DNA of 64,000 bases from Sipunculus nudus (lineage: Eukaryota > Annelida > Sipuncula > Golfingiida > Sipunculidae). Positions 23,600-64,000 of this stretch are shown here, piece after piece; position 1 is the stretch's first letter; each line of letters begins with the position of its first letter. The DNA is taken from NCBI GenBank assembly GCA_026874595.1, contig CM049309.1, positions 52,178,079-52,242,078 of the forward strand, written 5' to 3'. Made by a program: the position numbers and the translations under genes. The notes beneath the pieces were generated by a model. It was not told the origin of the DNA and made no database searches. It saw only the letters and a list, made by a program, of their open reading frames with translations.

Positions 23600-26030
23600 C
23601 TGATGGCTGAATAAGCAAATATTGACAGCTCACACATAGTCCTTCCATCACGCAGAAAGGCTAGCTTCTTCAAAAGAATTTTCTTATTATCCACCATGTT
23701 TTCCATAGTTTTTCTCATTATCCACCATGTTTAACTCTAGTATGTGGTAAAATGATCCTAGAAATGTCTATACAATTACAGTGTTACTTGACTTTGCATG
23801 TCAGAACTTCTTGTTGAATTACACCTACCAAAGTAGTATGGTTTACCGGTGTTTGTTCATTTGTTTGCTAACAATTTTGAGACCAGCAACTACATCAAGA
23901 CCAGTAGACACATTGTCTGCTAGCTAGGATTTGTATGTTTTTCAGCATCAAAGACTGACACATGAATTATATTTGTACTATTAGATGGTCAGAATTATTG
24001 AGCATATCTAGTGTATTTGTCATATCTAGTGCATTTTACTTTTCATATGTTATAAAGTATGCAATTCAATTTTGCAAAAAGTGATTTTTCATTTTGAGTC
24101 AAGCACATAGATTTAATTTCCTTACTCTATTACGGTGGACTGACACGCAAGGGGAGCAAGCTGTCCAAATGCAATACATCAAGACATAAATGGAGCTTTG
24201 GCTTACAGTAAAATTAATTACAAAGAAATTATAAAACATGAGAATCTAAATACAGTTTAGCCTTCATATATTAATCAAAGTAAGATAATTTTTGAGAAAT
24301 ACATGTACATGGTTTAGATGAGTAGAATTTGTGTATATTTGTTGTAACAGGGTGACCTACCTTATATCTGACCCAGAAAACAAAAAGTAATTTTGTTGCC
24401 TCATATGACCAGTTTCCAGCACCATGGCACCATATATCTTTCCCTAGCAGGGTGTAAATAACATACGAGTCTGTATGTGTATCTGATATTATTGAATTAA
24501 CCATCAGAGCCACCTGGGGCAGCATGTGAAGTTGCCAGAATCCAGACAGATCAGCCAGATACATAAAGTAGTATTGGTATGTCACCTGCCTGAATGTCAC
24601 TTATTGTTACCATAAGGTAACACTGATATATATTTATTCCGCTAAAACAGGTTTTTTTTGTTATCTATCATGAAATACTGCAAAACACTTCAAATTTGAA
24701 GCAAAAATTGGGCATTATTTGATACATTGTAATCTGTTGATTATTTCAGTGCAGTGTTTTTATCCATAGTTATAATTATTTGTAATATTATTTGCAGTCA
24801 GTTCACTACCAAACACAGCAGTGTCAGTCTATGTCAAACTAAATTAGCACATGAATGTGTTTAACATTAATCAAACACTTGCATTTAAATTTTGTTTTAC
24901 AAAGTTTTGCCAGTTTACTTAGTAGAAATATTCAACAAATGATTAATTATCAATTGGTGCCACTGTCTGCTTCAAATTTGAGGTTAAATGGGTATATCAC
25001 CGTGTTTAATCACAGGTACCCAGCGGAGCTTATATTTTAGAGGCAGATTTATTTCTGCAGGCAAAACCAACATGGTTAATGCTTTTGACTTTTTTTACAA
25101 AGAGATTAAGAAAATTATTCCATTAAAGCATTTAAAGTTAATGATACCTGTATGGAATGATGGAATACAATTTTTTATCTCTTTAAGCACAAAGAACCCT
25201 TTTATAGTTAGAAGCATGAAATTTTGTGAATAATATTGCAGCATCATTAGTATAGTCCTATATATAGTCAAATGTGTGCCCATCAACAATACTGCCAGAT
25301 ATAATATGTCATGTGGATTGTATTTTGCATACACATGAGTAAATGGTCATGGCAAAAATTAAGCTACCAACAGTAGTTTGAAATAATTAAGACTTAAATG
25401 GGTGTATATGAGTGTGTGATTACTGAAATGGCAGTTAATGACTTTGTTATAGATGAACAACTGTAAATTGATTCAGAAATCTTCCTCTCCCTGTTTCCTG
25501 AGTTATAAATAATTCTTTGATGTTACACATAATGGTTGTTAAACATTTATTATTACTCTCAACAAGGAGTGGTTGCATAATGTACTGAAGTACAATTATT
25601 TAATAAATTGATATAATTAAATTGACCTGTTCACTTTAAAACTTATTATTTTCCTGAAATGGAAAGGCCTTATTAATCTCTTTCTTTCTCTCTCTCTCTC
25701 TTTCTCGCTTTCCAACTTGGCTGACAGGGAGTCATTTCAGTCAATGGGATCACTCTTAATTTTATGTTATCTTTCCATTATGCTGTTCATCTGGTCATGT
25801 GGTTATAGGGCAATGGGAGACATGGGGATATAAAACTTCACATGTATGCAGACGAATCCTAATTGGTCTTCTGTGAAAACAAAAAGTTGGTCACTGTAAC
25901 CTATATTCTGTGAGCAATGGTGCAGCAACATGTATCAATGAGTTGTCAGTAAAAACCAATCACAAATGCTTAGATTCCTCAGTAAAGGCTTAATTTATTT
26001 GTCATCAGATTTGAATGCTCTTTTATCATG
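23600..26030. other. AT-rich single-copy stretch
   Basis: No gene is supported. A (TC)n tract lies at 25,676-25,705. A phrase near 25,888 (GGTCACTGTAACCT) recalls the family K/B monomer and may be a small relic. 26,060-26,230 has a GGTGGTGCCACTTGCAG word like family A monomers. Confidence 0.45.
25676..25705. repeat. (TC)n microsatellite
   Basis: A CTTTCTTTCTCTCTCTCTCT-type pyrimidine tract with minor interruptions. Confidence 0.9.
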
Positions 26031-35596: not shown

Positions 35597-37590
35597 TTAG
35601 CTCAGCTGACTGTAAGTCATCTCAGCTATAGCGATCACTCTTTTTGTCTGTTGTCCGTCTGTCTGTCTGTCGCGCTGTCCGTCTGTCTGTCCGTTAACCA
35701 GGCACAAATCGTAACCGCTGGACCTAGAATCTTATAACTTGACATTCTGAGAGGTCTATAAAAAATCTCCTTGGAAACCAGAAATTAGGTCTCTGTTACC
35801 CATATTCTTCGAGCTATGGGACCCCAAAGTACCCCCCAGAATAGTAAAAAATTTCATACAAAAACTTCAATATCTGACCGGCTTCTGTGGCTCAGGGGTA
35901 GAGCGCAGGACTCAAAGCCGGTAGATCGTGAGTTCGAACCTCAGCTGAGGCGGTGAGGTTTTTCACGGTCAGCTCCTACCCAGGGTGAGCGCTCTGCAGG
36001 CTTAATGGGAAGTTTGTGCCCAACAGCCGTGTTTCAATCACAAACGAGTGCGCCTTTCGAGGGTCCTTGGTGGTATGATTACCAACCCAAGGCCCGCAGG
36101 TGCAGTAGTCACCGGGCCTGGTTAAAGTCAGGATATCAAATGAGAGGAAGCGCGTGATACTGCCCTGTCACGTAGTCCGAAACTGAAATGGAAATCTGCA
36201 GATGTACATATAATTAGTTAAGCTAGCATTGAAAAAATGGAGGCGGTTACCTCCAACAAAAAATATTTAAAAAATAAAAAAATAAAAAATAAAAACTTCA
36301 ATATCTCATTAACTACATCACTGATAGTCATGATTTTTGGCATACATATTGATCATGAGATGTTCCATCAGTTCCTGCAGACTGGTGGCACCACCTATAT
36401 TTTTCGATTTTTTAAGAATAGTTTTCTCTATTTTTGAGACCTTTAAAAATGTGAACATCTGTTAACAGGGCACAAATCGTAAAGACTGGACCTAGAATCT
36501 TCATTCTTGACACACTGAGAGACCTATGAAAAGTCTCCATGGAAACCAGAAATTATGTCTCTGTTACCCATATCCTTGAGCTAGGGGGCCCCAAAGTACC
36601 CCCCCCCCTGGAATAGTCAAAAATTTCATACAAAAACTTCAATATCTCCTTAACTACATCACTGATGGTAATGATTTTTGGCATACATATTGATCATGGG
36701 ATGTTTCATCAGTTTCTGCAGACTGGTGGTGCCACCTGTATTTTTCGATTTTTAACGAATTGTTTTCTCTATTTTTGAGACCTTTGAAGATATGAACATC
36801 TGTTAACAGGGCACAAATCATAACAACTGGACCTAGAATCTTCATTCTTGACACACTGAGAGACCTATGAAAAGTCTCCATGGAAACCAGAAATTAGGTC
36901 TCTGTTACCCATATCCTTTAGCTGTATGGGTTCAAAATACCCCCCAGAATAATGAAAAATTTGATACAAAAACTGCAGTATCTCAATAACTGCAACACTG
37001 ATATTTATGATTTGTGGCATACATATTGATCATGAAGTGTTCCATCAGTTTTTGCAGACTGGGTGCGCCACATCTATTTTTTTCAAATTTTTACGAATTT
37101 TTTTCCTTATTTTTTAGACCTTTAAAGATGTGGTTATCTGTCAACAGGGTATAAATCGTAACAACTGGACTTAGAATCTTCATTCTGGTCATGCAATGAG
37201 GCCCATGAAAAATGTCTGTGGAAACCTGAAATGAGGTCTCTGTTACCCATATCCTTTAAGCTTTAGGACTCCGAAGTATCCCTCAGAATAATGGAAAATT
37301 TAATACAAAAGCTGAAGTATCTAAACAACTAATGCAGAGTTCACCATGATTCTTTGCATGGATTTTAAAGCCTTAAGTGTTTTTATTAGTTTCTGCAGAC
37401 TTTTTTTTTAAGTTAATGCATTTTTTCTCTATTTTTGATATACATATAAATACAGACACAATCTTGGCCTGTTGGTTAATCTGTTTGATGCTTCAGTTGA
37501 ATGGGTATATAATACCATTCAGATGATAAAATTTCCTTTTGCGAATCTCTTCCCAGTCACCTGAGAGTCATGACCCATGGGTCACTTGTT
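35597..37590 (+). mobile_element. family B Helentron-like element, copy B1
   Basis: The 5' end is AGCTCAGCTGACTG (35,599 on). The 3' end is a CAGTCACCTGAGAG form of the inverse, then the hairpin TGACCCATGGGTCA and CTTGTT (to 37,590). Between are a GTCTGTCTGTCCG tract and four monomers of 337-341 bp (GGACCTAGAATCTT words at 35,718, 36,486, 36,827 and 37,165). The first interval becomes 337 bp once the SINE unit is removed. Left flank is a T run and right flank starts after CTTGTT, suiting TT insertion as known for Helentrons. No coding. Confidence 0.75.
35876..36290 (+). mobile_element. tRNA-derived SINE with perfect 16-bp target duplication
   Basis: The head is tRNA-like with a Pol III box A (TGGCTCAGGGG, 35,888-35,898) and box B (GTTCGAACC, 35,932-35,940). 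A body of about 270 nt follows, then an A-rich tail of AAATAAAA units. AAAAACTTCAATATCT flanks it exactly at 35,860-35,875 and 36,291-36,306. The uninterrupted sequence survives in sister monomers of family B (for example at 42,357), so insertion is proved from the window itself. It is about 415 bp, probably transcribed by Pol III from its own boxes. Family name not assigned. Confidence 0.95.
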
Positions 37591-40345: not shown

Positions 40346-41003
40346 TTGATTCTCTTATGTCAGATTGGTAAAATGGCATTAATGATCAGAGACATGGATC
40401 AGAGGATGAGTCTCTTGTCTCATCATAACGGGGTGTTCTGTCTGATACTGGCATGGTCTTATTTTAATACTCCTGGGGGTCTCATCAAGGTTGCCAGGGT
40501 GACTGATACTATTCCTCAAGGATTCTTCTGATCTGATCAACATTAGCACTTCCTATAGACCATGGTTTGGGGTTATTTATTTTTCCTGTTCATCAGTTTG
40601 ATATTATTATGACAGAACAGCAAATAAAAGTTATGCAAACAAGCAAACATTTTTCTATGGATTCCCCACTTCCATTTTTCATGGAGCAAATTTTTCTTAC
40701 AAATGATGAACTGGTCCTTGGTAATGTTGCTAATTTGTGCTGTGGCACAATTTCCTTTAAAGAATTCTTAAAGATATGGCAAAAAGGGCTAAATTTAGTG
40801 TTGATGAGTTACATCATTTCAAGAAATGAGATTTTTCCCAGCTGAATGAAAGTCATCTTAGCTACAGTGATCACTCTTTGTCCTTGTACTGTCCAGCTGT
40901 CTGTCTGTCCGTAAACAGGGTACAAATTGTGAACACTGGACCTAGAAATTTTTCACTGTAGATCCATGGAGGTCAATTAAAATCTCTTTGGTCTTTGGAA
41001 ATT

Positions 41004-41018
41004 AGGTCACTGTGACCT
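41004..41018. promoter_or_regulatory. perfect palindromic AGGTCAnnnTGACCT site 1
   Basis: AGGTCACTGTGACCT is the consensus estrogen-response-element type inverted repeat (3-base spacer). It lies in the first monomer of family K. Confidence 0.55.
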
Positions 41019-41387
41019 ATTTTCTTTCAGTTATGGGACTCACAAGTACACCCCCCAGAATGGGGGTTGTGTCCATCTGACTTATTGGTACTCAAATCAT
41101 ACTCTTTCACATAGCTCACAGATATATTTCATAATGGCCTTACTTTTGATGTAAAAGGAGACATAACAATGACCACCCTTTACATTAAGAAAGGAATTTC
41201 TTGATTCAACAGTTAAGAATTGTGACCTGTCTGACTTTCTGGGTGTTTAAAATTAGGTATTCTGTTCATAGCTCACAGGTCACAGTGGCCTAATTTTAGG
41301 ATTAAAAGGAGACTTACCAAGTTTTGTGCCCTGTCTGACTGTCTGGATGGTCCTAATCATATTTTTGGCTGGTCACTTAAAAAATAT

Positions 41388-41402
41388 AGGTCACCATGAC
41401 CT
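41388..41402. promoter_or_regulatory. perfect palindromic AGGTCAnnnTGACCT site 2
   Basis: AGGTCACCATGACCT, both half-sites perfect. The nearby 41,277-41,291 copy has a single change in one half-site (TGGCCT). Confidence 0.55.
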
Positions 41403-41488
41403 ATTTCCAGGTTTTCAAGGAAATTTGACCAGAACCTCCAAAGATTTTGTGTTATTTTGTGTTTTTTTCCCTATTGCTTGCAAAATGT

Positions 41489-41503
41489 AGGTCACACTGA
41501 CCT
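41489..41503. promoter_or_regulatory. perfect palindromic AGGTCAnnnTGACCT site 3
   Basis: AGGTCACACTGACCT, both half-sites perfect, 101 bp after site 2. A further one-mismatch copy (AGGTCACCAAGACCT) lies at 41,650-41,664. Confidence 0.55.
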
Positions 41504-41873
41504 AATTTTATGTTACCAAGGACATTTATATAGGAGCTCCACGAATGTCACATTAGAAGATTCTAGACAAAATGGATATAATTTGTGCCCCATCTGACTC
41601 TCTGCTGGGTGCTCAGAATCATGTTTACAACCAGTAGCTCACAGAATATAGGTCACCAAGACCTAATTTCAGGTTTCCAAGGAGATTTGCCTTGGACATC
41701 TAAGTCTAATGATTACAGTTTGTGCCCTGTTAACATTTCTTCATTTGAAGGTTTCAAAAATAGAGAAAAAAATTAGCTTTTCAAGTGCTTATTTATATAT
41801 AAAAAAAGAAAAAGTATATTTTGCATTTGCTAAAATTAAAAAAAAAATCAGCTATATTTTGCATTTGCTCAAC

Positions 41874-42110
41874 ATTTTATACGCCCGTCATATGACAGGA
41901 GTATTATGGTATACATATTTATATAAATTTCCTGTGGTATTGTATCAGTGGACATTACCAGTATTTCCTATGGTTTTTCAATCAGTGGACATTTCCAGTA
42001 TATCCTTTTGTATTGTATCAGTGGACATTACCATTATTTCCTATGGTATTTTTATCACTAGACATTACCAATATTTCCTATGGTAATTTTATCAGTGGAC
42101 ATACCATTTT
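41874..42110 (+). repeat. family C-type start and 36-bp minisatellite, part 1
   Basis: It starts with ACGCCCGTCATATGACAGG (palindrome GTCATATGAC) and ATTATGGTATAC, as in family C. Then 36-bp units follow (GTGGACATT words at 41,949, 41,985, 42,021 and 42,057) with CAGTATTTCCTATGG-like content. Because 36 is a multiple of three, a spurious peptide repeat (VDITIISYGIF) is seen. The array is interrupted at 42,111 by element B2. Confidence 0.8.
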
Positions 42111-43053
42111 TTAGCTCAGCTGACAAAAAGTCATCTGAGCTATAGCAATCACTCTTTGTCCGTCGTCCGTCTGTCTGTCCATCTGTCCGTTAACCAGGCA
42201 CACATCGTAACCGCTGGACCTAGAACCTTGTTACTTGGGATTCTGAGAGGTCCATGGAAAATCTCCTTGGAAACCAGAAATTAGGTCTCTGTTACCCATA
42301 TCCTTCAAGTTATGGGGCCCCAATGTACCCCCCAGAAAAGTAAAAAATTTCATACAAAAACTTCAATATCTCATTAACTACTTGACTGATGGTCATGATT
42401 TTTGGCATACATATTGATCATAAGATGTTCCATCAGTTCCTGAAGACTGGTGGTGCCACCTGTATTTTTCGATTTTTTATGAATTTTTTTCTCTATTTTT
42501 GATACCTTTAAAAATGTGAACATCTGTTAACAAGGCACAAATCGTAAAGACTGGACCTAGAATCTTCACTCTCGACACACTGAGAGACCTATAAAAAGTC
42601 TCCATGGAAACCAGAAATTAAGTCTCTGTTACCCATATCCTTTGAGCTATGGGGCCCCAAAGTACCCCCCAGAAAAGTAAAAAAAATTTCATACAAAAAC
42701 TTCAATTTCTCATTAAATACTTGACTGATGGTAATGATTTTTGGCATACATATTGATCATGAGATGTTCCGTCACTTCCTGCAGACTTGTGGCGCCACCT
42801 GTATCATTCAGTTTTTTTATGAATTTTTTTCTCTATTTTTGAGACCTTTCAAAATGTGAACATCTGTTAACATGGCACAAATTGTAAAGACTGGTTCTAG
42901 AATCTTAATTCTTGACACACTTAGAGGTCCATGAAAAATCTCCTTGGAAACCAGACATTATGTCTCTGTTAACCATATCCTTCGAGCTATGGGGCCCCAA
43001 TTTTAAGTACCCGCCAGAGTAGTCAAAAATTTCATACAAAACTTCAATATCTC

Positions 43054-43730
43054 AATAACTACGTCACTGATGGTCATGATTTTTGGCATACATATTGATT
43101 ATGAGATGTGTCATCACTTCCTGCAGACTGGTGGCGCCACCTGTATTGTTCGATTTTTTATGAATTTTTTTCTCTATTTTTGAGCCCTTTCAAAATGTGA
43201 ACATCTGTTAACAAGGCACAAATCGTAAAGACTGGACCTAGAATCTTAAATCTTGACACACTGAGAGGTCCATAAAAAATCTCCTTGGAAACCAGAAATT
43301 AGGTCTCTGTTACCCATATCCTTTGAGCTATGGGGCCCCAAAGTACCCCCCAGAAAAGTAAAAAATTTCATACAAAAACTTCAATAAATCAATAACTACA
43401 TCACTGATGGTCATGATTTTTGGCATACATATTGATTATGAGATGTGTCATCACTTCCTGCAGACTGGTGGCGCCACCTGTATTGTTCGATTTTTTATGA
43501 ATTTTTTTCTCTATTTTTGAGCCCTTTCAAAATGTGAACATCTGTTAACAAGGCACAAATCGTAAAGACTGGACCTAGAATCTTAAATCTTGACACACTG
43601 AGAGGTCCATAAAAAATCTCCTTGGAAACCAGAAATTAGGTCTCTGTTACCCATATCCTTTGAGCTATGGGGCCCCAAAGTACCCCCCAGAAAAGTAAAA
43701 AATTTCATACAAAAACTTCAATAAATCAAT
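43054..43730 (+). repeat. two nearly identical 337-bp monomers in B2
   Basis: Words such as TGAGCCCTTTCAAAATG recur at exactly 337 bp (43,181 and 43,518), and TGATTATGAGATGTGTCATC at 43,094, 43,431 and 43,768. These neighbours are far closer to each other than to the flanking monomers, showing a recent local amplification. Confidence 0.85.
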
Positions 43731-44459
43731 AACTACATCACTGATGGTCATGATTTTTGGCATACATATTGATTATGAGATGTGTCATCACTTCCTGCAG
43801 ACTGGTGGCGCCACCTGTATCGTTCGAATTTTTAGGAATTTTTTTCTTTATTTTTGAGACCTTTAATGATATGAACATCTGTTAACAGGGCACAAATCAT
43901 AAAAACTGGACCAAGAATCTTCATTCTTGACACACAGGGAGACCCATGAAAATTCTCCATGGAAACCTGAAATTAGGTCTCTGTTAACCATATTCTTAAG
44001 GCTGTATGGCTGGAAAATTTGATACAAAAAGTGCAGTATCTCAATAACTACAACACTGATGGTCATGATTTTCGGCATACATATTGATCATGAGCTGTTC
44101 CATCAGTTTCTGCAGACTGGGTGCGCCACCTCTATTTTTTTCAAATTTTTACGAATTTTTTTTTTGAGACCTTTAAAGATGCGGTTATCTGTCAACAGGG
44201 TACAAATTGCAACAACTGGACCTAGAAACTTCATTCTTGTCATGCAAGGAGGCCCATGAAGAGTGACTGTGGAAACTTGAAATTAGGTCTCTGTTAGTGT
44301 TACCCATATCCTTCAAGCTATAGGACTCTGAAGTATCCCTCAGAATAATGGACAATATGATACAAAAGCTGAAGTATCTGAACAACTAATGCGGAGATCA
44401 TCATGATTCTTTGCATGGATATTGACCATTAAGTGTTTTTATTAGTTTCTGCAGACTGG

Positions 44460-45634
44460 TGGAGCCAAAATGAAGTTTTGCAGATACTATGTTGTTGACC
44501 GGGTTCCTCCACCACCGCCACGTTTGTTTCCAGAGAGCTCCTCTGAGAAAAATGGACCGATTTTTCTGAAACTTGCACCAATTATTGAGTCACATGTGAA
44601 CTAGTGCCTAACCAATTTGTGTTGACCTCTGACCTTTCCCCTCTATCCAGCGTCGATTTGTGCGTCTGTTTCCACACATAAACCCTCATACCTCGGGAAC
44701 CGATTGACCAATCAGGAAATAAAATTTATACAAATGTAGCCCTTGGATTGCTTTATAACATACACAAAAATGGTGACGCCACCTGTAACCATGTTTGCAG
44801 TGTCCATCTGTTCATCTGCCTTGGGTAAAAATCACTTATATCTCTGCAGTGAATTGACTAATTCACCTAAAATTCGGCATGCATATACATCCAGGATAGC
44901 TTTCTTGATTTTATGACAGATGGCGCCACCTACATTTACGTTCACGCTGATCACATCGAAGCTCATATCTGGGGAACCGTTTAACCGATTGGGCCAAAAT
45001 TTTGCATGTGTATAGATCTCACATAGCTCTTTATCATACGCAAAATTGGTGGCGCCACCTGCAACCATTTTTGCACAGCGTCTGTCTGTTTTCTGCCGTG
45101 GGATAATGTCACTCATATCTCGGCAGTGGTTTGACATATCTGCCTAAAATTTTGCAGTTTCATACATCCTGGATAGCTTTCTTGATTTTATGACAGGTGG
45201 CGCCACCTACATTCTAGTTTATGCTGCAGACATCCGAGCTCATATCTCGGGAACCTTTTGAACGATTGGGCCAAAATTTTGCATGTGTATAGATCTCACA
45301 TAGGTCTTTATCATACACAAAACTGGAGTTGCCACCTGCTACCATTTTTGCACAGTGTCTGTCTGTTTGTCTGCCGTCAGCTAAAATCACTCATATACAT
45401 GTAGTGGTTTGACTTTTCTGCCTAAAATTTTGCATATGTATACAACTTGGACAGCTTTCTGGATTTGTGGTAGGTGGCACAAACTACATACACATTTAGG
45501 CTGCAGACATGCATGCTAATATGCAACATACCTCACTCTATTTCCCCTTGCCACTCAATCCATGCCTCACTTCAACCGTTCCACTCTGATTTTGGCGGAT
45601 ACACGTAGTCACTTGTCGGCTACCCGTATTCTAG
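44460..45634 (+). mobile_element. family A Helitron-like element, copy A4, inside B2
   Basis: The start AGTTTTGCAGATACTATG at about 44,472 matches A3 and the 2.46-kb fragment. The body has clear GGTGGCGCCACC monomers (for example 44,921-44,932-type, 45,049-45,060 and 45,197-45,208). The 3' end is GTAGTC-ACTTGTC-GGCTAC, CCGTATT, CTAG at 45,631-45,634. B1 at 37.38-37.42 kb shows the uninterrupted family B sequence, so A4 inserted into B2 after B2 existed. Non-autonomous. Confidence 0.75.
44633..44645 (-). promoter_or_regulatory. perfect DR1 motif in family A copy A4
   Basis: TGACCTCTGACCT, the third copy of the same inherited 13-mer (see 3,589 and 18,675). Confidence 0.5.
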
Positions 45635-45819
45635 TTTTTAAAGTTTACACATTTTTTCTCTATTTTTGAGATATATAAATACAGACTAAATCTTGGCCTG
45701 TTGGTTAATCTGTTTGATGCTTCAGTTGAATGGGTATATACTACCATTCTGATGATAAAATTTCCTTTTGTGAATCTCTTCCCAGTCAGCTGAGCGTCAT
45801 GACCCATGGGTCACTTGTT

Positions 45820-46112
45820 TCTATGGTATTTTGTCGTGAACATTACCATTATTTCCAATGTTTTTTTTATTTATGGACATCATGATTATTTTCTTATGGT
45901 AATTGTATCAATTGACATTACCAATAATATCTGTGGTTATCAGTAGGCATTACCATTAAATCCTATGGTTATCAGTGGACATAACCATTATTTCCTATTG
46001 TATTTTATTAGTGGACATTACCAATATATCCCCTGGTATTATATCAGTGGACATTACCATTATTTCCTATGGTATTTTTATCAGTGGGCATCACCCTCAT
46101 TTCCTATGGTTA
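45820..46112 (+). repeat. 36-bp minisatellite, part 2
   Basis: Units with GTGGACAT words at 45,975, 46,011 and 46,047 and then 46,084 (GTGGGCA) continue the array interrupted by B2. It stops at 46,112 where element B3 begins. Confidence 0.85.
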
Positions 46113-46450
46113 TTAGCTCAGCTGACTGAAAGTCATCTGAGCTATAGCGATCACTCTTCATCTGGCGTCCGTCTGTCCGGTCGTCCGGCAGTCTGGCAGT
46201 CCGTCTGTGAACAGGGCACAAATGGTAACCCCTGGACCTAGAATCTTCTTACTTAACATCCAGGGAGGTCCATGAAAAATCTCCTGGGAAACCTGAAATG
46301 AGGTCTCTGTTACCCATATTCACCAAGTTATGGGTCTTGTAAGTAGCCCCCAGAATAATCAAAAATGTTATACAAAAGCTCATGTATCTGAAGTGTTTCA
46401 TCAGTTTCAGCAGACTTTTTATGAATTTTTTTCTTTATTTTTGAGACCTT

Positions 46451-47272
46451 CAAAAAGCCTCATCTTGTAACATGGCACAAATCGTAACCCCTCCCCTAGA
46501 ATCTTCATACTTGACATCTAGATAGGTCCATGAAAAGACTTCATGGAAATCTGAAATAAGGTCTCTGTTACCCATATTCTCCGAGCTATGGAGCTCATAA
46601 GTACCCCTCAGAAAAGTTAAAAATTTGATTCCGAAACTCGAGTATCTGAATAACTAATGCATTGAACACCATGATTTTTTGCATGATTATTGATCATGGA
46701 GTGTTCCATCATTTCCTGCAAACTGGTGGCTCCATCTGTATTTTTTTCTAATTTTTACAAATTTTTTTTCTCTATTTTTGATACCTTCAAGGAAGCTGTC
46801 ATCTGTTAACAGGGCACAAATTGTAACCTCTGGATCTGGAATCTAAGATCTAACTTGACATTCAAAAAGCCTCATCTTGTAACATGGCACAAATCGTAAC
46901 CCCTCCCCTAGAATCTTCATACTTGACATCTAGATAGGTCCATGAAAAGACTTCATGGAAATCTGAAATAAGGTCTCTGTTACCCATATTCTCCGAGCTA
47001 TGGAGCTCATAAGTACCCCTCAGAAAAGTTAAAAATTTGATTCCAAAACTCGAGTATCTGAATAACTAATGCATTGATCACCATGATTTTTTGCATGATT
47101 ATTGATCATGGAGTGTTCCATCATTTCCTGCAAACTGGTGGCTCCATCTGTATTTTTTTCTAATTTTTACAAATTTTTTTCTCTATTTTTGATACCTTCA
47201 AGGAAGCTGTCATCTGTTAACAGGGCACAAATTGTAACCTCTGGATCTAGAATCTAAGATCTAACTTGTTAT
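46451..47272 (+). repeat. 412-bp near-identical tandem duplication in B3
   Basis: CAAAAAGCCTCATCTTGTAA starts at 46,451 and 46,863. I see only about four single-base differences and a one-base T-run change between copies, so this is much younger than the 335-bp monomers it arose from. Confidence 0.9.
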
Positions 47273-48077
47273 CAAGGGACGTCCATGAAAAGTCTCTGTG
47301 GAAACATGAAATGAGGTCTCTGTTACCCATATCCTCCGAGCTATGAGGCTCCTAAGTACTCCTCAGTATAAATTAAAAGTTTGATACAAAAACTCCAGTA
47401 TCTGAATAACTAGTGCACTGATGGCCATGACTTTTTGCATGCCTATTGATCTTGGAGTGTTTCATCAGTTCCTGCAGACTGGTGGCGCTACCTGTATTTT
47501 TTTTAAATGTTTTCACATTTTTTTCTCTATTTTTGAGACCTTCAAATAAAGCGTCATCTTGTAACATGGCACAAATCGTAACCTCTGGCCCTAGAATTGT
47601 CATACTTGATATCTAGAGAGATCCATGAAAAGTTTTCATGGAAATCTGAAATTAGGTTTCTGTTACCCATATTCTCTGAGCTATGGAGCTCGTAATTAAC
47701 CCTCAGAAAAGTTAAAAATTTGATACAAAAGCTTCAGTATCTGAATAACTACTGCATTGATCATCATGATTCTATGCATGAATATTGATCATGGAGTGTT
47801 CCATCATTACCTGCAAACTTGTGGCGCCACCTGTATTCTTTCTAATTTTTAATTATCTAATTTTTTTCTCTATTTTTGTTACCTTCAAAGAAGCTGAAAT
47901 CTGTTAACAGGGCATAAATCGTAACTGCTGGACCTGGAATCTTTGAACTTGACATCGAGGGAGGTCCATGAAAAGTCTTCATAGAAATCTGAAATAAGGT
48001 TTCTGTTACCCATATTCTCTGCGCTATGGGGCTCGTAAGTACCCCTCACAATAATTAAAAATTTGATATCAAAACTC

Positions 48078-48800
48078 TGCGTTCGTTTCCAGAGAACTCC
48101 TCTGAGATCCTTGGTCCTATCTTTCCGAAACCCAACTTAGTTGTTCCCTTCACCTATGTGGTTGTCCCTAACAAAGACAGGTGGCACCATCAGCATGTGC
48201 AATCCTTTCTGTGCAGTACAAAGCTGGGTGTCTTTTAGATAACAGCCCATATCTCAGGAGTGGTTTAATGTATTAAGCTGAAAGTTTGCATGTCCATAGA
48301 ACTTAGATCTCTCCATCTCATTATCATGACTGGTGGCGCCACCAACAATACTTTTTGCGTAGTGTTCATCATTGCATTTGCCATCTTGTCATCTTAGTTG
48401 TTCTTCAATGTATTGGCTTGAAATTGTGCATGTTAATAGATCATCAACATCTACATCTCATTAACAAGACTCTTGGGACCATCTGCAGTCATTTTTGTGT
48501 GGTGTCTATCTGTATATTAGCTTTTGATGAAAATTGCTCAAGTCTTAGGAATGGTTCAAGATATTGGTCTGAAATTTGGCATGTCCATCCATCTTGGTAA
48601 GTTTTCTTAAAAACCAGCTACCTACCACCTACCTTCCCATTTTTGTAGAATAATTAATGCCCTTTTCTCAGGAGTGATTCGCAATAATAGCCTGAAATGG
48701 TGCATGGACTCTTCCATCTTGTACTCAAGACTCATGGTGCCATCTGCAAATGTTTTCCTGTGGCGTCCATCATCTATTTATGAAACCTTCAAATGAAGTG
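48078..48800 (+). mobile_element. family A-like segment inside B3
   Basis: TTCGTTTCCAGAGAACTCCT then CTGAGAT matches the family A 5' block. Diverged monomers with GGTGGCGCCACC (about 48,332-48,343) and TTTGCATGTCCATAGA follow. No hairpin-CTAG end is recognised. Confidence 0.45.
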
Positions 48801-48941
48801 GTCATCTGTCAAAAAGCCCATTGAAACCCATTTCTTAGGACTCATCATGAAGTCATGATTTGTTGGCACTCTGGCAGTCATTTTGCTCATTTATAAAAAT
48901 TCCTTGAATTCAGCTGAGCTTCATGGCCCATGGGCCACTAG

Positions 48942-49035
48942 TATTGTATCAGTGGGCATAACCAGTATTTCCTGTGGTGACTGTATCAGTGGATATTGCC
49001 ATTAATTCCAATGGCTTTCTGTCATGGACTTGTAT
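48942..49035 (+). repeat. 36-bp minisatellite, part 3
   Basis: GTATCAGTGGGCATAACC, AGTATTTCCTGTGG and TATCAGTGGATATTGCC words continue the interrupted array and then decay. Confidence 0.75.
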
Positions 49036-62789: not shown

Positions 62790-62975
62790 TCAGCTCTGCT
62801 GACTGGAGTAATACCAGGGTCTGTAGGGAAGGTCTTTTTTTTCCGTTATCTGTGTGTCAATCTGGCCATGGTCATTTGACAAAGAGACTTTAGACATCTA
62901 GAAAAATCCTGAGAGAAATTCTGAAATTAGGTCACTATTACCTAAATCTTGCATCCTTAGGGGCAACCAGAGCTA
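62790..62975 (+). mobile_element. relic of a family K/B element start
   Basis: CAGCTCTGCTGACTGGAG, a CCGTTATCTGTGTGTC tract and GAAATTAGGTCACTATTACC follow the family K/B order. The palindrome here is AGGTCACTATTACCT, one change from consensus. Confidence 0.4.
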
Positions 62976-63126: not shown

Positions 63127-64000
63127 TATGCCCCCGCCACAAAGTGGCCGGGGCATATAGTTTTACCCATGTCCGTCATTCCGTCCTTCCGTCATTCCGA
63201 AATCAAACAGTTGTACGGACTTTTTTTCGCAGTGCCTGCAGATATTGGCCTGATTTTTGGTGTGTGGGCAGATATAGACCAGTTACAGATCAAGTTTGCG
63301 TTTTGTCCTGGTTGACCTACTTTTGACCGTTTTACGGCTCCTAAACTTAAAAAATTTCATGAAAAATAGAAATTTCATGACAAATACACATGTACGGACT
63401 TTTTTTCACAATGCCTGCAGATATTGGCCTGATTTTTGGTGTGTGGGCAGATATTGACCAGTTACAGATCGAGTTTGCGTTTCGTCCCAGTTGACCTACT
63501 TTTGATTGTTTTACAGCTCCTGAACATAGAAAATTTCATGTTAAATATAAATTTTCATGACAAATACACTTGTACAGACTTTTCTTCGCAATACCTGCAG
63601 ATATTGGCCTGATTTTTGGTGTGTAGGCAGATAATGACCAGTTACAGATCGAGTTCGCGTTTTGTCCCAGTTGCCTTACTTTTGACTGTTTTACGGCTCC
63701 TAAACTTAGAAAATTTCATGAAAAATAGAAATTTTCATGACAAATGTACACATATACGGACTTTTTTTCGCAATGCCTGCAGATATTGGCCTGCTTTTTG
63801 TGTGTGGGCAGATAATGACCAGTTACAGATCGAGTTCGCGTTTCGTCCCGGTTGACCTACTTTTGAACGTTTTACGCCTCCTTAACTTAGAAAATTTCAT
63901 GAAAAATAGAAATATTCATGACAGATACACATGTACAGACTTTTTTTCGCAATGCCTGCAGATATTGGCCTGATTTTTGGTGTGTGGGCAGATATAGACC
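63127..64000 (+). mobile_element. family M Helitron-like repeat with 180-bp monomers, cut by window end
   Basis: It opens with a hairpin TATGCCCCCGCCAC-AAA-GTGGCCGGGGCATA (63,127-63,157, one mismatch). A CCGTCATTCCGTCCTTCCG tract follows, then five monomers with CCTGCAGATATTGGCC-type words at 63,235, 63,414, 63,594, 63,776 and 63,955 (179-182 bp). Open frames through the monomers are by-products (FFRNACRYWP-like peptide repeats). The architecture (hairpin start, pyrimidine-rich Tn tract, monomers) parallels families B, C, D and K. The 3' end lies beyond the window. Confidence 0.75.

What the first reader, a model, noticed from the sequence alone, without database searches (positions are those of the whole stretch)
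40839..41740. Transposon-like repeat carrying an array of consensus ERE-type palindromes
Seen: perfect AGGTCAnnnTGACCT sites at 41,004, 41,388 and 41,489, and one-mismatch sites at 41,277 and 41,650, all inside one repeat. A given 12-base-constrained palindrome is expected about once per 17 Mb by chance, so three in 500 bp reflects the repeat monomer. Known: this is the consensus for estrogen-receptor-class nuclear receptors. Inferred: an amplifying element may have spread receptor sites through this genome. Family B monomers have the decayed form AGGTCTCTGTTACCC at the same point.
Basis: partly seen in the sequence, partly recalled or inferred. Interest (0 to 1): 0.7.

Follow-up and report, generated by a model that had tools for sequence, protein, structure and literature searches.

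The report
Jumping repeat carrying estrogen-receptor-type sites
A family of non-coding jumping DNA repeats carries, as a standard part of its repeat unit, the exact palindrome that estrogen-type receptors recognise, and the genome holds thousands of exact copies of that palindrome; nothing here shows that the receptors actually use them.

Summary
The palindromes are real: AGGTCANNNTGACCT is perfect at 41004, 41388 and 41489, with one mismatch at 41277 and 41650. The window's genome (1.43 Gb) holds 13,608 perfect sites against 93 for the reversed control pattern. The "K repeat" is not one element: a plus-strand 5' part of a HINE-like element (non-autonomous Helentron, about 40835-41061) abuts a minus-strand monomer array (41108-41775). 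In 20 loci fetched because they hold the palindrome, 33 of 36 perfect sites lie in monomers of this family. Forty copies found by flanking sequence only have the consensus TAGGTCATGGTGACCTA; 18 of 40 have perfect arms. The palindrome is therefore a family trait. In those 40 copies arms and spacer decay alike (0.909 vs 0.899), arm changes are rarely compensated, and the same box is highly conserved in related "B" monomers where it is not palindromic. I read it as a conserved monomer box that happens to be a consensus ERE and was spread by transposition. Receptor use is untested here; a snail ER-like protein binds this core in a published gel-shift (PMC3778743, passages).

The parts
40835..41061 (+). 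HINE-like 5' head (degenerate subTIR, inverted repeat, GTCY-like microsatellite) plus its first monomer
   Evidence: 71-73% identity to the heads of three B elements; 5'-end scan with 6 mismatches over 33 bases
41004..41018 (.). perfect palindrome AGGTCACTGTGACCT in the head monomer
41108..41775 (-). minus-strand array of diverged monomers; no head or tail of its own recognised in the window
   Evidence: five minus-strand hits of the B monomer model, 41108-41735; self-alignments; 41635-41774 aligned to the reverse of B units
41277..41291 (.). AGGTCACAGTGGCCT, one mismatch
41388..41402 (.). perfect palindrome AGGTCACCATGACCT
41489..41503 (.). perfect palindrome AGGTCACACTGACCT
41650..41664 (.). 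AGGTCACCAAGACCT, one mismatch
35599..37590 (+). B-type HINE (head, ~341-bp units with AGGTCTCTGTTACCC, 3' subTIR with 2 mismatches and hairpin), interrupted by a tRNA-derived SINE-like insert
42113..45819 (+). apparent B-type HINE with both ends (it also holds a 277-bp array, so it may be compound), between two stretches of a 36-37-bp tandem array
46115..48943 (+). B-type HINE; 3' end degenerate (hairpin with 5 mismatches at 48920, subTIR with 2 at 48907)
25720..25926 (+). strongly diverged head (25720-25760) and monomer with TGGTCACTGTAACCT at 25888
62790..62964 (+). strongly diverged monomer with AGGTCACTATTACCT at 62929, after a subTIR-like stretch (62793, 1 mismatch); the head model gave no hit here

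Best explanation
The locus is two broken copies of a non-autonomous Helentron-like (HINE) family of the kind known from bivalves. Shown: the family's monomer contains a conserved box that, in head monomers and in the short (~155-bp, K-type) arrays, reads TAGGTCANNNTGACCTA in consensus, a perfect ERE. Inferred: Helentron enzymes acting in trans multiplied whole elements, arrays included, so the palindromes were spread as passengers. Inferred: most copies then decay neutrally; each fresh copy is a potential docking site for AGGTCA-binding receptors and may occasionally be used.
For: Genome count 13,608 vs 93 control; the narrower AGGTCACNNTGACCT gives 9,032/8,957 vs 45/36. 33 of 36 perfect sites in 20 palindrome-selected loci lie in hits of the B monomer model: 17 in arrays, 14 near a head, 2 in single monomers, 3 without a hit. 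K-type relatives have recognised ends in the orientation of their array; L053 has head, array and tail within 1.6 kb. The K consensus has the perfect palindrome even after dropping every monomer that could have selected its own locus (34 of 54 left), and in 40 copies found by flank only. K monomers of different loci often group together on the tree, as expected if whole arrays were copied. Arms 0.909 and spacer 0.899 identity in the 40 copies. HINE anatomy as described in PMC7492417 and PMC4067079.
Against: Between K monomers the arms (0.89 all; 0.82 after removing ascertainable rows) are better kept than the spacer (0.58) and the other columns (0.76), which could be read as selection on the sequence; without the ascertainable rows, however, the site ranks only 22 of 145 windows. 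In the 40 flank-found copies the arms also exceed the downstream columns (0.909 vs 0.825), and 18 perfect sites were seen against 4 expected at the downstream rate. Those 40 are the best-scoring copies of a consensus query, so young copies are favoured. No autonomous Helentron was looked for.
Confidence: 0.8

Rival explanations
1. The palindrome is a working receptor site: the element (or the host) benefits because an AGGTCA-binding receptor, e.g. an ER ortholog, ERR or another dimer binder, binds the monomers, driving element transcription in the germ line or host gene regulation.
For: Exact match to the consensus; an ER-like protein of the snail Marisa binds GGTCAnnnTGACC in EMSA (PMC3778743, passages). 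Arms better kept than spacer between K monomers, and than downstream columns in the 40 copies. 14 of 36 sites lie 92-171 bases after a recognised head. The genome encodes many nuclear receptors (67 zf-C4 matches), including an ERR-type DNA-binding domain.
Against: In the 40 flank-found copies arms and spacer are equally kept. The non-palindromic B box is among the most conserved stretches of its monomer (rank 4 of 139 windows over 91 rows without a site filter) and belongs to an arrayed family too. No ER-type domain was seen in the zf-C4 exons read, and the direct search did not complete. In Marisa, ERR did not bind the ERE (data not shown in PMC3778743).
Confidence: 0.12
2. The palindrome matters as a single-strand hairpin in rolling-circle replication or array expansion, not as a protein site.
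For: HINEs are assigned to rolling-circle elements, and palindromes are part of their 3' ends (PMC4067079, passages); the CTG-spacer form is symmetric over 8+1+8 bases.
Against: In 54 K monomers the arm pairs (7 per monomer, flanking T-A included) show 63 one-sided changes and 10 two-sided changes, only 3 of which still pair. B monomers break three of six arm pairs (by inspection) yet form long arrays.
Confidence: 0.05
3. Chance cluster of palindromes.
For: None found.
Against: 13,608 vs 93 genome-wide; family consensus contains it.
Confidence: 0.01

Closest known systems
Cg_HINE elements of Crassostrea gigas (PMC7492417; abstract and sections 7 and 9 read)
   Same: 5' subTIR with complementary inverted repeat, GTCY-type microsatellite, satellite-like central monomers, 3' subTIR plus palindrome, T-rich insertion sites
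   Different: The parts read mention no receptor-type palindrome; monomer sequences there were not compared (supplements not available)
HINE/DINE-1 non-autonomous Helentrons (PMC4067079; passages seen)
   Same: Same end structure; some copies with microsatellites or tandem repeats
   Different: Mite and Drosophila elements; no receptor-type sites in the passages seen
HNF4alpha sites in human Alu repeats (PMC3252374; title and start of abstract in the search listing only)
   Same: An abundant transposon spreads nuclear-receptor sites
   Different: There a SINE and an HNF4 site; here a rolling-circle-type element with consensus EREs in arrays
Transposons and transcription-factor binding in the human genome, with estrogen receptor in the search hit (PMC3478180; search listing only)
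   Same: Transposons linked to factor binding sites
   Different: Human genome, details not read; here only sequence

Membership tests
HINE (non-autonomous Helentron) | 5' subTIR of about 11-13 bp with a nearby complementary inverted repeat | tested here: met
   B elements at 35599, 42113, 46115 (2, 2 and 0 mismatches over 33 bases); window K head with 6
HINE (non-autonomous Helentron) | Short microsatellite after the 5' end | tested here: met
   GTCY-type tract after each of the four heads, by inspection (rows 35645/35646 and 46166)
HINE (non-autonomous Helentron) | Central tandem repeats | tested here: met
   337-343-bp B arrays; ~155-bp K arrays in seven fetched loci
HINE (non-autonomous Helentron) | 3' subTIR followed by a palindrome | tested here: met
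   B: 37554-37590 (subTIR 2 mismatches) and 45783-45819 (0); tail-model hits after the array in L053, L040, L042, L039, L047 and L044. Not met for the window's K copy itself, which lacks a tail
HINE (non-autonomous Helentron) | Insertion at TT, no target-site duplication | tested here: inconclusive
   T-run before three of four heads and TTATT before the fourth; element 42113-45819 lies between two stretches of one 36-37-bp array whose edges fit together by eye; no genome-wide empty-site search
HINE (non-autonomous Helentron) | Autonomous Helentron partner with the same ends | not tested
   no search made
Estrogen response element | Sequence AGGTCANNNTGACCT | tested here: met
Estrogen response element | Bound by an estrogen-type receptor of this species | not testable with these tools
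   only the published binding of another mollusc's ER-like protein to the core
Estrogen response element | Genome encodes an ER with an ER-type DNA-binding domain | tested here: inconclusive
   67 zf-C4 matches, 66 of them in DNA that I held; ERR type found; ER type not seen by the motif patterns used; direct search did not complete

The most novel reading that the evidence does not exclude
A rolling-circle transposon family has seeded a mollusc-like genome with over ten thousand perfect estrogen-receptor palindromes, many in tandem, enough to titrate or redirect a ligand-independent ER or related receptors. Other repeats in the same genome carry direct-repeat receptor sites (DR2, DR1, DR0), so mobile DNA as a whole supplies its nuclear-receptor landscape.
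Probability: 0.15. Interest if true: 0.85.

Novelty: new variant of a known kind. Interest (0 to 1): 0.58.

Why it matters
[quoted passage not shown] If the host here is a mollusc, as its repeats suggest, this gives a count for one genome, and in the loci sampled nearly all perfect sites sit in one transposon family. Counts of EREs near genes in such genomes could then largely measure transposon insertions unless these are masked. It also makes a test case for whether consensus receptor sites delivered by a transposon are used or ignored.

Tried and rejected
Searches for relatives outside this genome found nothing: two palindrome/box patterns and one head pattern in viral contigs, the head pattern in genome contigs, K against plasmids and one B element against phages by blastn. 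These collections hold microbes, plasmids and viruses, so this says little.

Considered and rejected: K as a single element (orientation of head and array differ); K as a fold-back element with a family-wide inverted layout (in the seven K-type loci the array and at least one recognised flanking end share orientation); hairpin function; conservation of the palindrome as proof of receptor function (B box control). The tree of monomers did not fix whether the palindrome or the B form is ancestral.

Paper searches with no hit: ERE, transposable element and mollusc; a five-term nuclear-receptor search; bivalve, ERE and repetitive. Searches gave 2, 3 and 2 papers whose titles and abstract starts do not describe such a case; they were not opened. 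This covers open-licence PMC papers only.

Not answered: spacing series, count of the B form AGGTCTCTGTTACCC, count of DR2 AGGTCANNAGTTCA, and the ER DNA-binding-domain search.

Failed scripts: no BLAST output, parsing error; time limit.

Full report
Observation. AGGTCANNNTGACCT occurs without mismatch at 41004, 41388 and 41489 and with one mismatch at 41277 and 41650. Eleven matches with up to two mismatches lie in the window, against a mean of 2.62 and a maximum of 8 in 100 shuffles. The window's own assembly (G000, 1,426,538,692 bases, 153 contigs; window = C4:52178079-52242078) has 13,608 perfect sites, against 93 for the pattern read backwards. The narrower pattern AGGTCACNNTGACCT has 9,032 forward and 8,957 reverse matches, against 45 and 36.

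Anatomy. The region is not one repeat. Stretches 41470-41590 and 41635-41774 align with such elements in the minus direction. A model built from 17 B-element stretches finds one plus-strand monomer (40908-41059) and five minus-strand hits (41108-41735) in K. K is therefore a plus-strand 5' fragment next to a minus-strand array; no head or tail of the array itself was recognised in the window. The same model finds two very diverged relatives at 25866-25926 and 62892-62964, with TGGTCACTGTAACCT and AGGTCACTATTACCT at the site.

What the elements are. B elements begin after T-rich DNA with AGCTCAGCTGACTG or a close variant, followed by a complementary inverted repeat, a GTCY-type microsatellite, 337-343-bp tandem units and, at the 3' end, the subTIR again in inverse plus a hairpin GTCATGACCCATGGGTCACTTGTT. 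3' ends are at 37554-37590 and 45783-45819; a degenerate one is at 48907-48943. This is the layout of HINE elements, non-autonomous Helentrons, as described for the Pacific oyster (PMC7492417, abstract and two sections) and for DINE-1/HINE (PMC4067079, passages). No stop-to-stop ORF of 150 or more residues was listed in the window. The apparent element 42113-45819 lies between two stretches of one 36-37-bp tandem array (41927-42106 and 45821-46110), which supports its boundaries; it also contains a 277-bp array, so it may be compound. I did not look for an autonomous partner.

Where the palindromes sit. Twenty loci (158,120 bases, contig C1, first 4.9 Mb) were fetched because they hold the site, so they are biased. 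They contain 36 perfect sites; 33 of 36 lie in, or within 10 bases of, a hit of the B monomer model. By position, 17 are in arrays, 14 lie 92-171 bases after a recognised head, 2 are in single monomers, and 3 have no model hit. One of those 3 (L041) is just upstream of a HINE-like 3' end by eye. The outer bases are T and A (TAGGTCANNNTGACCTA) in 22 of the 36. Seven of the loci hold ~155-bp K-type arrays. In L053 head, array and tail follow within 1.6 kb in one orientation. L040 and L044 have the same order with gaps of 1 to 2 kb. L048 has head and array. L039, L042 and L047 have array and tail; in L042 the nearest head is followed by another tail and so may belong to a different element. Thirty nuclear-receptor loci (94,674 bases), fetched for another reason, have no perfect site; about one would be expected at the genome-wide density.

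Is the palindrome a family trait? In 57 K monomer rows from 8 arrays the consensus is TAGGTCATGGTGACCTA. After removing 3 overlapping rows and then all 20 rows whose own site could have brought in the locus, 34 of 54 remain and the consensus is the same. A cleaner sample used a 60-base query that ends before the site. It gave 45 matches, 40 candidates of 2,270 being scored. I fetched the 40 best matches with the adjoining site and left out the 5 weakest. They favour copies near the consensus. One (L110) lies in L040, which I already held, and at least two pairs are near-identical over the stretch fetched (L091/L102 with 0 differences, L115/L116 with 1). One (L120) carries the B form. The consensus is AAATTAGGTCATGGTGACCTATATT. 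In the aligned version, 18 of 40 have perfect arms, 10 have one mismatch, 5 have two and 7 have more. In the ungapped version the figures are 18, 9, 4 and 9.

Selection or passenger? For selection: between K monomers the arms are better kept (0.89 all, 0.82 in the unascertained subset) than the spacer (0.58) and the other columns (0.76). In the 40 flank-found copies the arms (0.909) exceed the downstream columns (0.825), and 18 perfect sites compare with 4 expected at the downstream rate. Against: in those 40 copies the spacer is as well kept as the arms (0.899, overlapping intervals; 0.875 vs 0.860 ungapped), so the whole box is kept, not the arms in particular. Among K monomers the best-kept window lies just upstream of the palindrome, and in the unascertained subset the site ranks 22 of 145 windows. 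In B monomers the same box, in its non-palindromic form, ranks 2 of 139 windows over 85 rows that were filtered on site letters. Without that filter it ranks 4 of 139 over 91 rows, 10 of 139 when the AC-form rows are added (109 rows), and 5 of 139 over the 17 full-length window rows, none of which the filter dropped. Arm pairs show 63 one-sided changes and 10 two-sided changes, of which 3 still pair, so pairing is not maintained. I conclude that the monomer has a conserved box, perhaps through repeated copying of a master array or a need of the element, and that its palindromic form is not needed for array formation.

History. A tree of 103 monomers without the site columns (38 K, 23 with AC at site positions 6-7, called H, and 42 others, B, a random 30 plus the window's) often groups K monomers of different loci. 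For example, window 41590 lies in a starred group of four with L047 and L039 monomers. Window 41230 lies in a starred group of four with an L039, an L047 and an H-labelled L035 monomer. Some K monomers of one locus also pair with each other, e.g. two of L053. This fits copying of whole arrays with some local duplication. H rows lie both outside and inside the B rows, so the direction of change is open. The two most diverged relatives in the window carry the AC...ACCT form, which leans towards the palindrome-like form being older.

Receptors. The genome has 67 matches to the zf-C4 family; 66 of the 67 places lie in DNA that I held. Exons picked out by motif patterns show an ERR-type domain (P-box EACKA, L019; second half L033) and many others; naming them is my recall. 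I saw no ER-type domain, but many first-finger exons end before the deciding residue and the direct search did not complete, so this is not evidence of absence. In the snail Marisa, the ER-like protein bound GGTCAnnnTGACC in EMSA and ERR did not (data not shown there), and its authors noted that the extent of EREs in mollusc genomes was unknown (PMC3778743, passages).

Host. That the host is a bivalve is an inference from the HINE style and from recall of genome and contig sizes; no call names it.

Wider pattern. Other receptor-type geometries are also in excess in the window against 60 simulated sequences: DR2 12 vs 0.20, DR1 6 vs 0.27, DR0 3 vs 0.22, IR4 2 vs 0.07, ER2 2 vs 0.10. Several DR2 sites lie in a dispersed repeat with a 32-base unit. 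The 20 palindrome-selected loci also hold 25 DR2, 19 DR0, 12 ER2 and 11 DR1; the 30 nuclear-receptor loci hold only 1 DR2, 1 DR0, 0 ER2 and 2 DR1 in 94,674 bases, so the excess is not uniform. Genome-wide counts were not obtained.

Verdict. A real, family-wide feature of a known kind of transposon with an unusual passenger. That an amplified element carries perfect ERE-type sites, and that the genome holds thousands of them, is shown; that nearly all of the 13,608 lie in it is extrapolated from 20 loci. Use by receptors is not shown, and the decay data lean against it.

Noticed in passing
window 11387, 22307, 22339, 22513, 22545, 56617, 56649, 58499, 58673, 59799: Ten AGGTCANNAGTTCA sites (DR2, retinoid-type by recall); nine were viewed and lie in a dispersed repeat with a 32-base unit (59799 not viewed). 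DR2 total 12 vs 0.20 in simulations.
   Followed up: partly
window 3589, 18675, 44623: DR1 site AGGTCAGAGGTCA on the minus strand, each about 130-300 bases before the start of a ~277-bp satellite array.
   Followed up: no
window 57109, 57253, 57539: AGGTCAAGGTCA (DR0) three times in or near a ~144-bp repeat.
   Followed up: no
window 35876-36290: tRNA-derived SINE-like insert (Rfam tRNA match at 35881, 29.4 bits; ends by eye) inside a B-type HINE array.
   Followed up: no
window 41927-42106 and 45821-46110: A 36-37-bp tandem array on both sides of the apparent HINE at 42113-45819; a second HINE starts at its right edge (46115).
   Followed up: partly
L050 3823/4870/5914, L054 2860/3903: Palindrome-bearing head monomers recur every 1,043-1,047 bases, so head plus monomers form a higher-order repeat.
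   Followed up: no
window 63212-64000: ~179-bp tandem array running to the window end.
   Followed up: no
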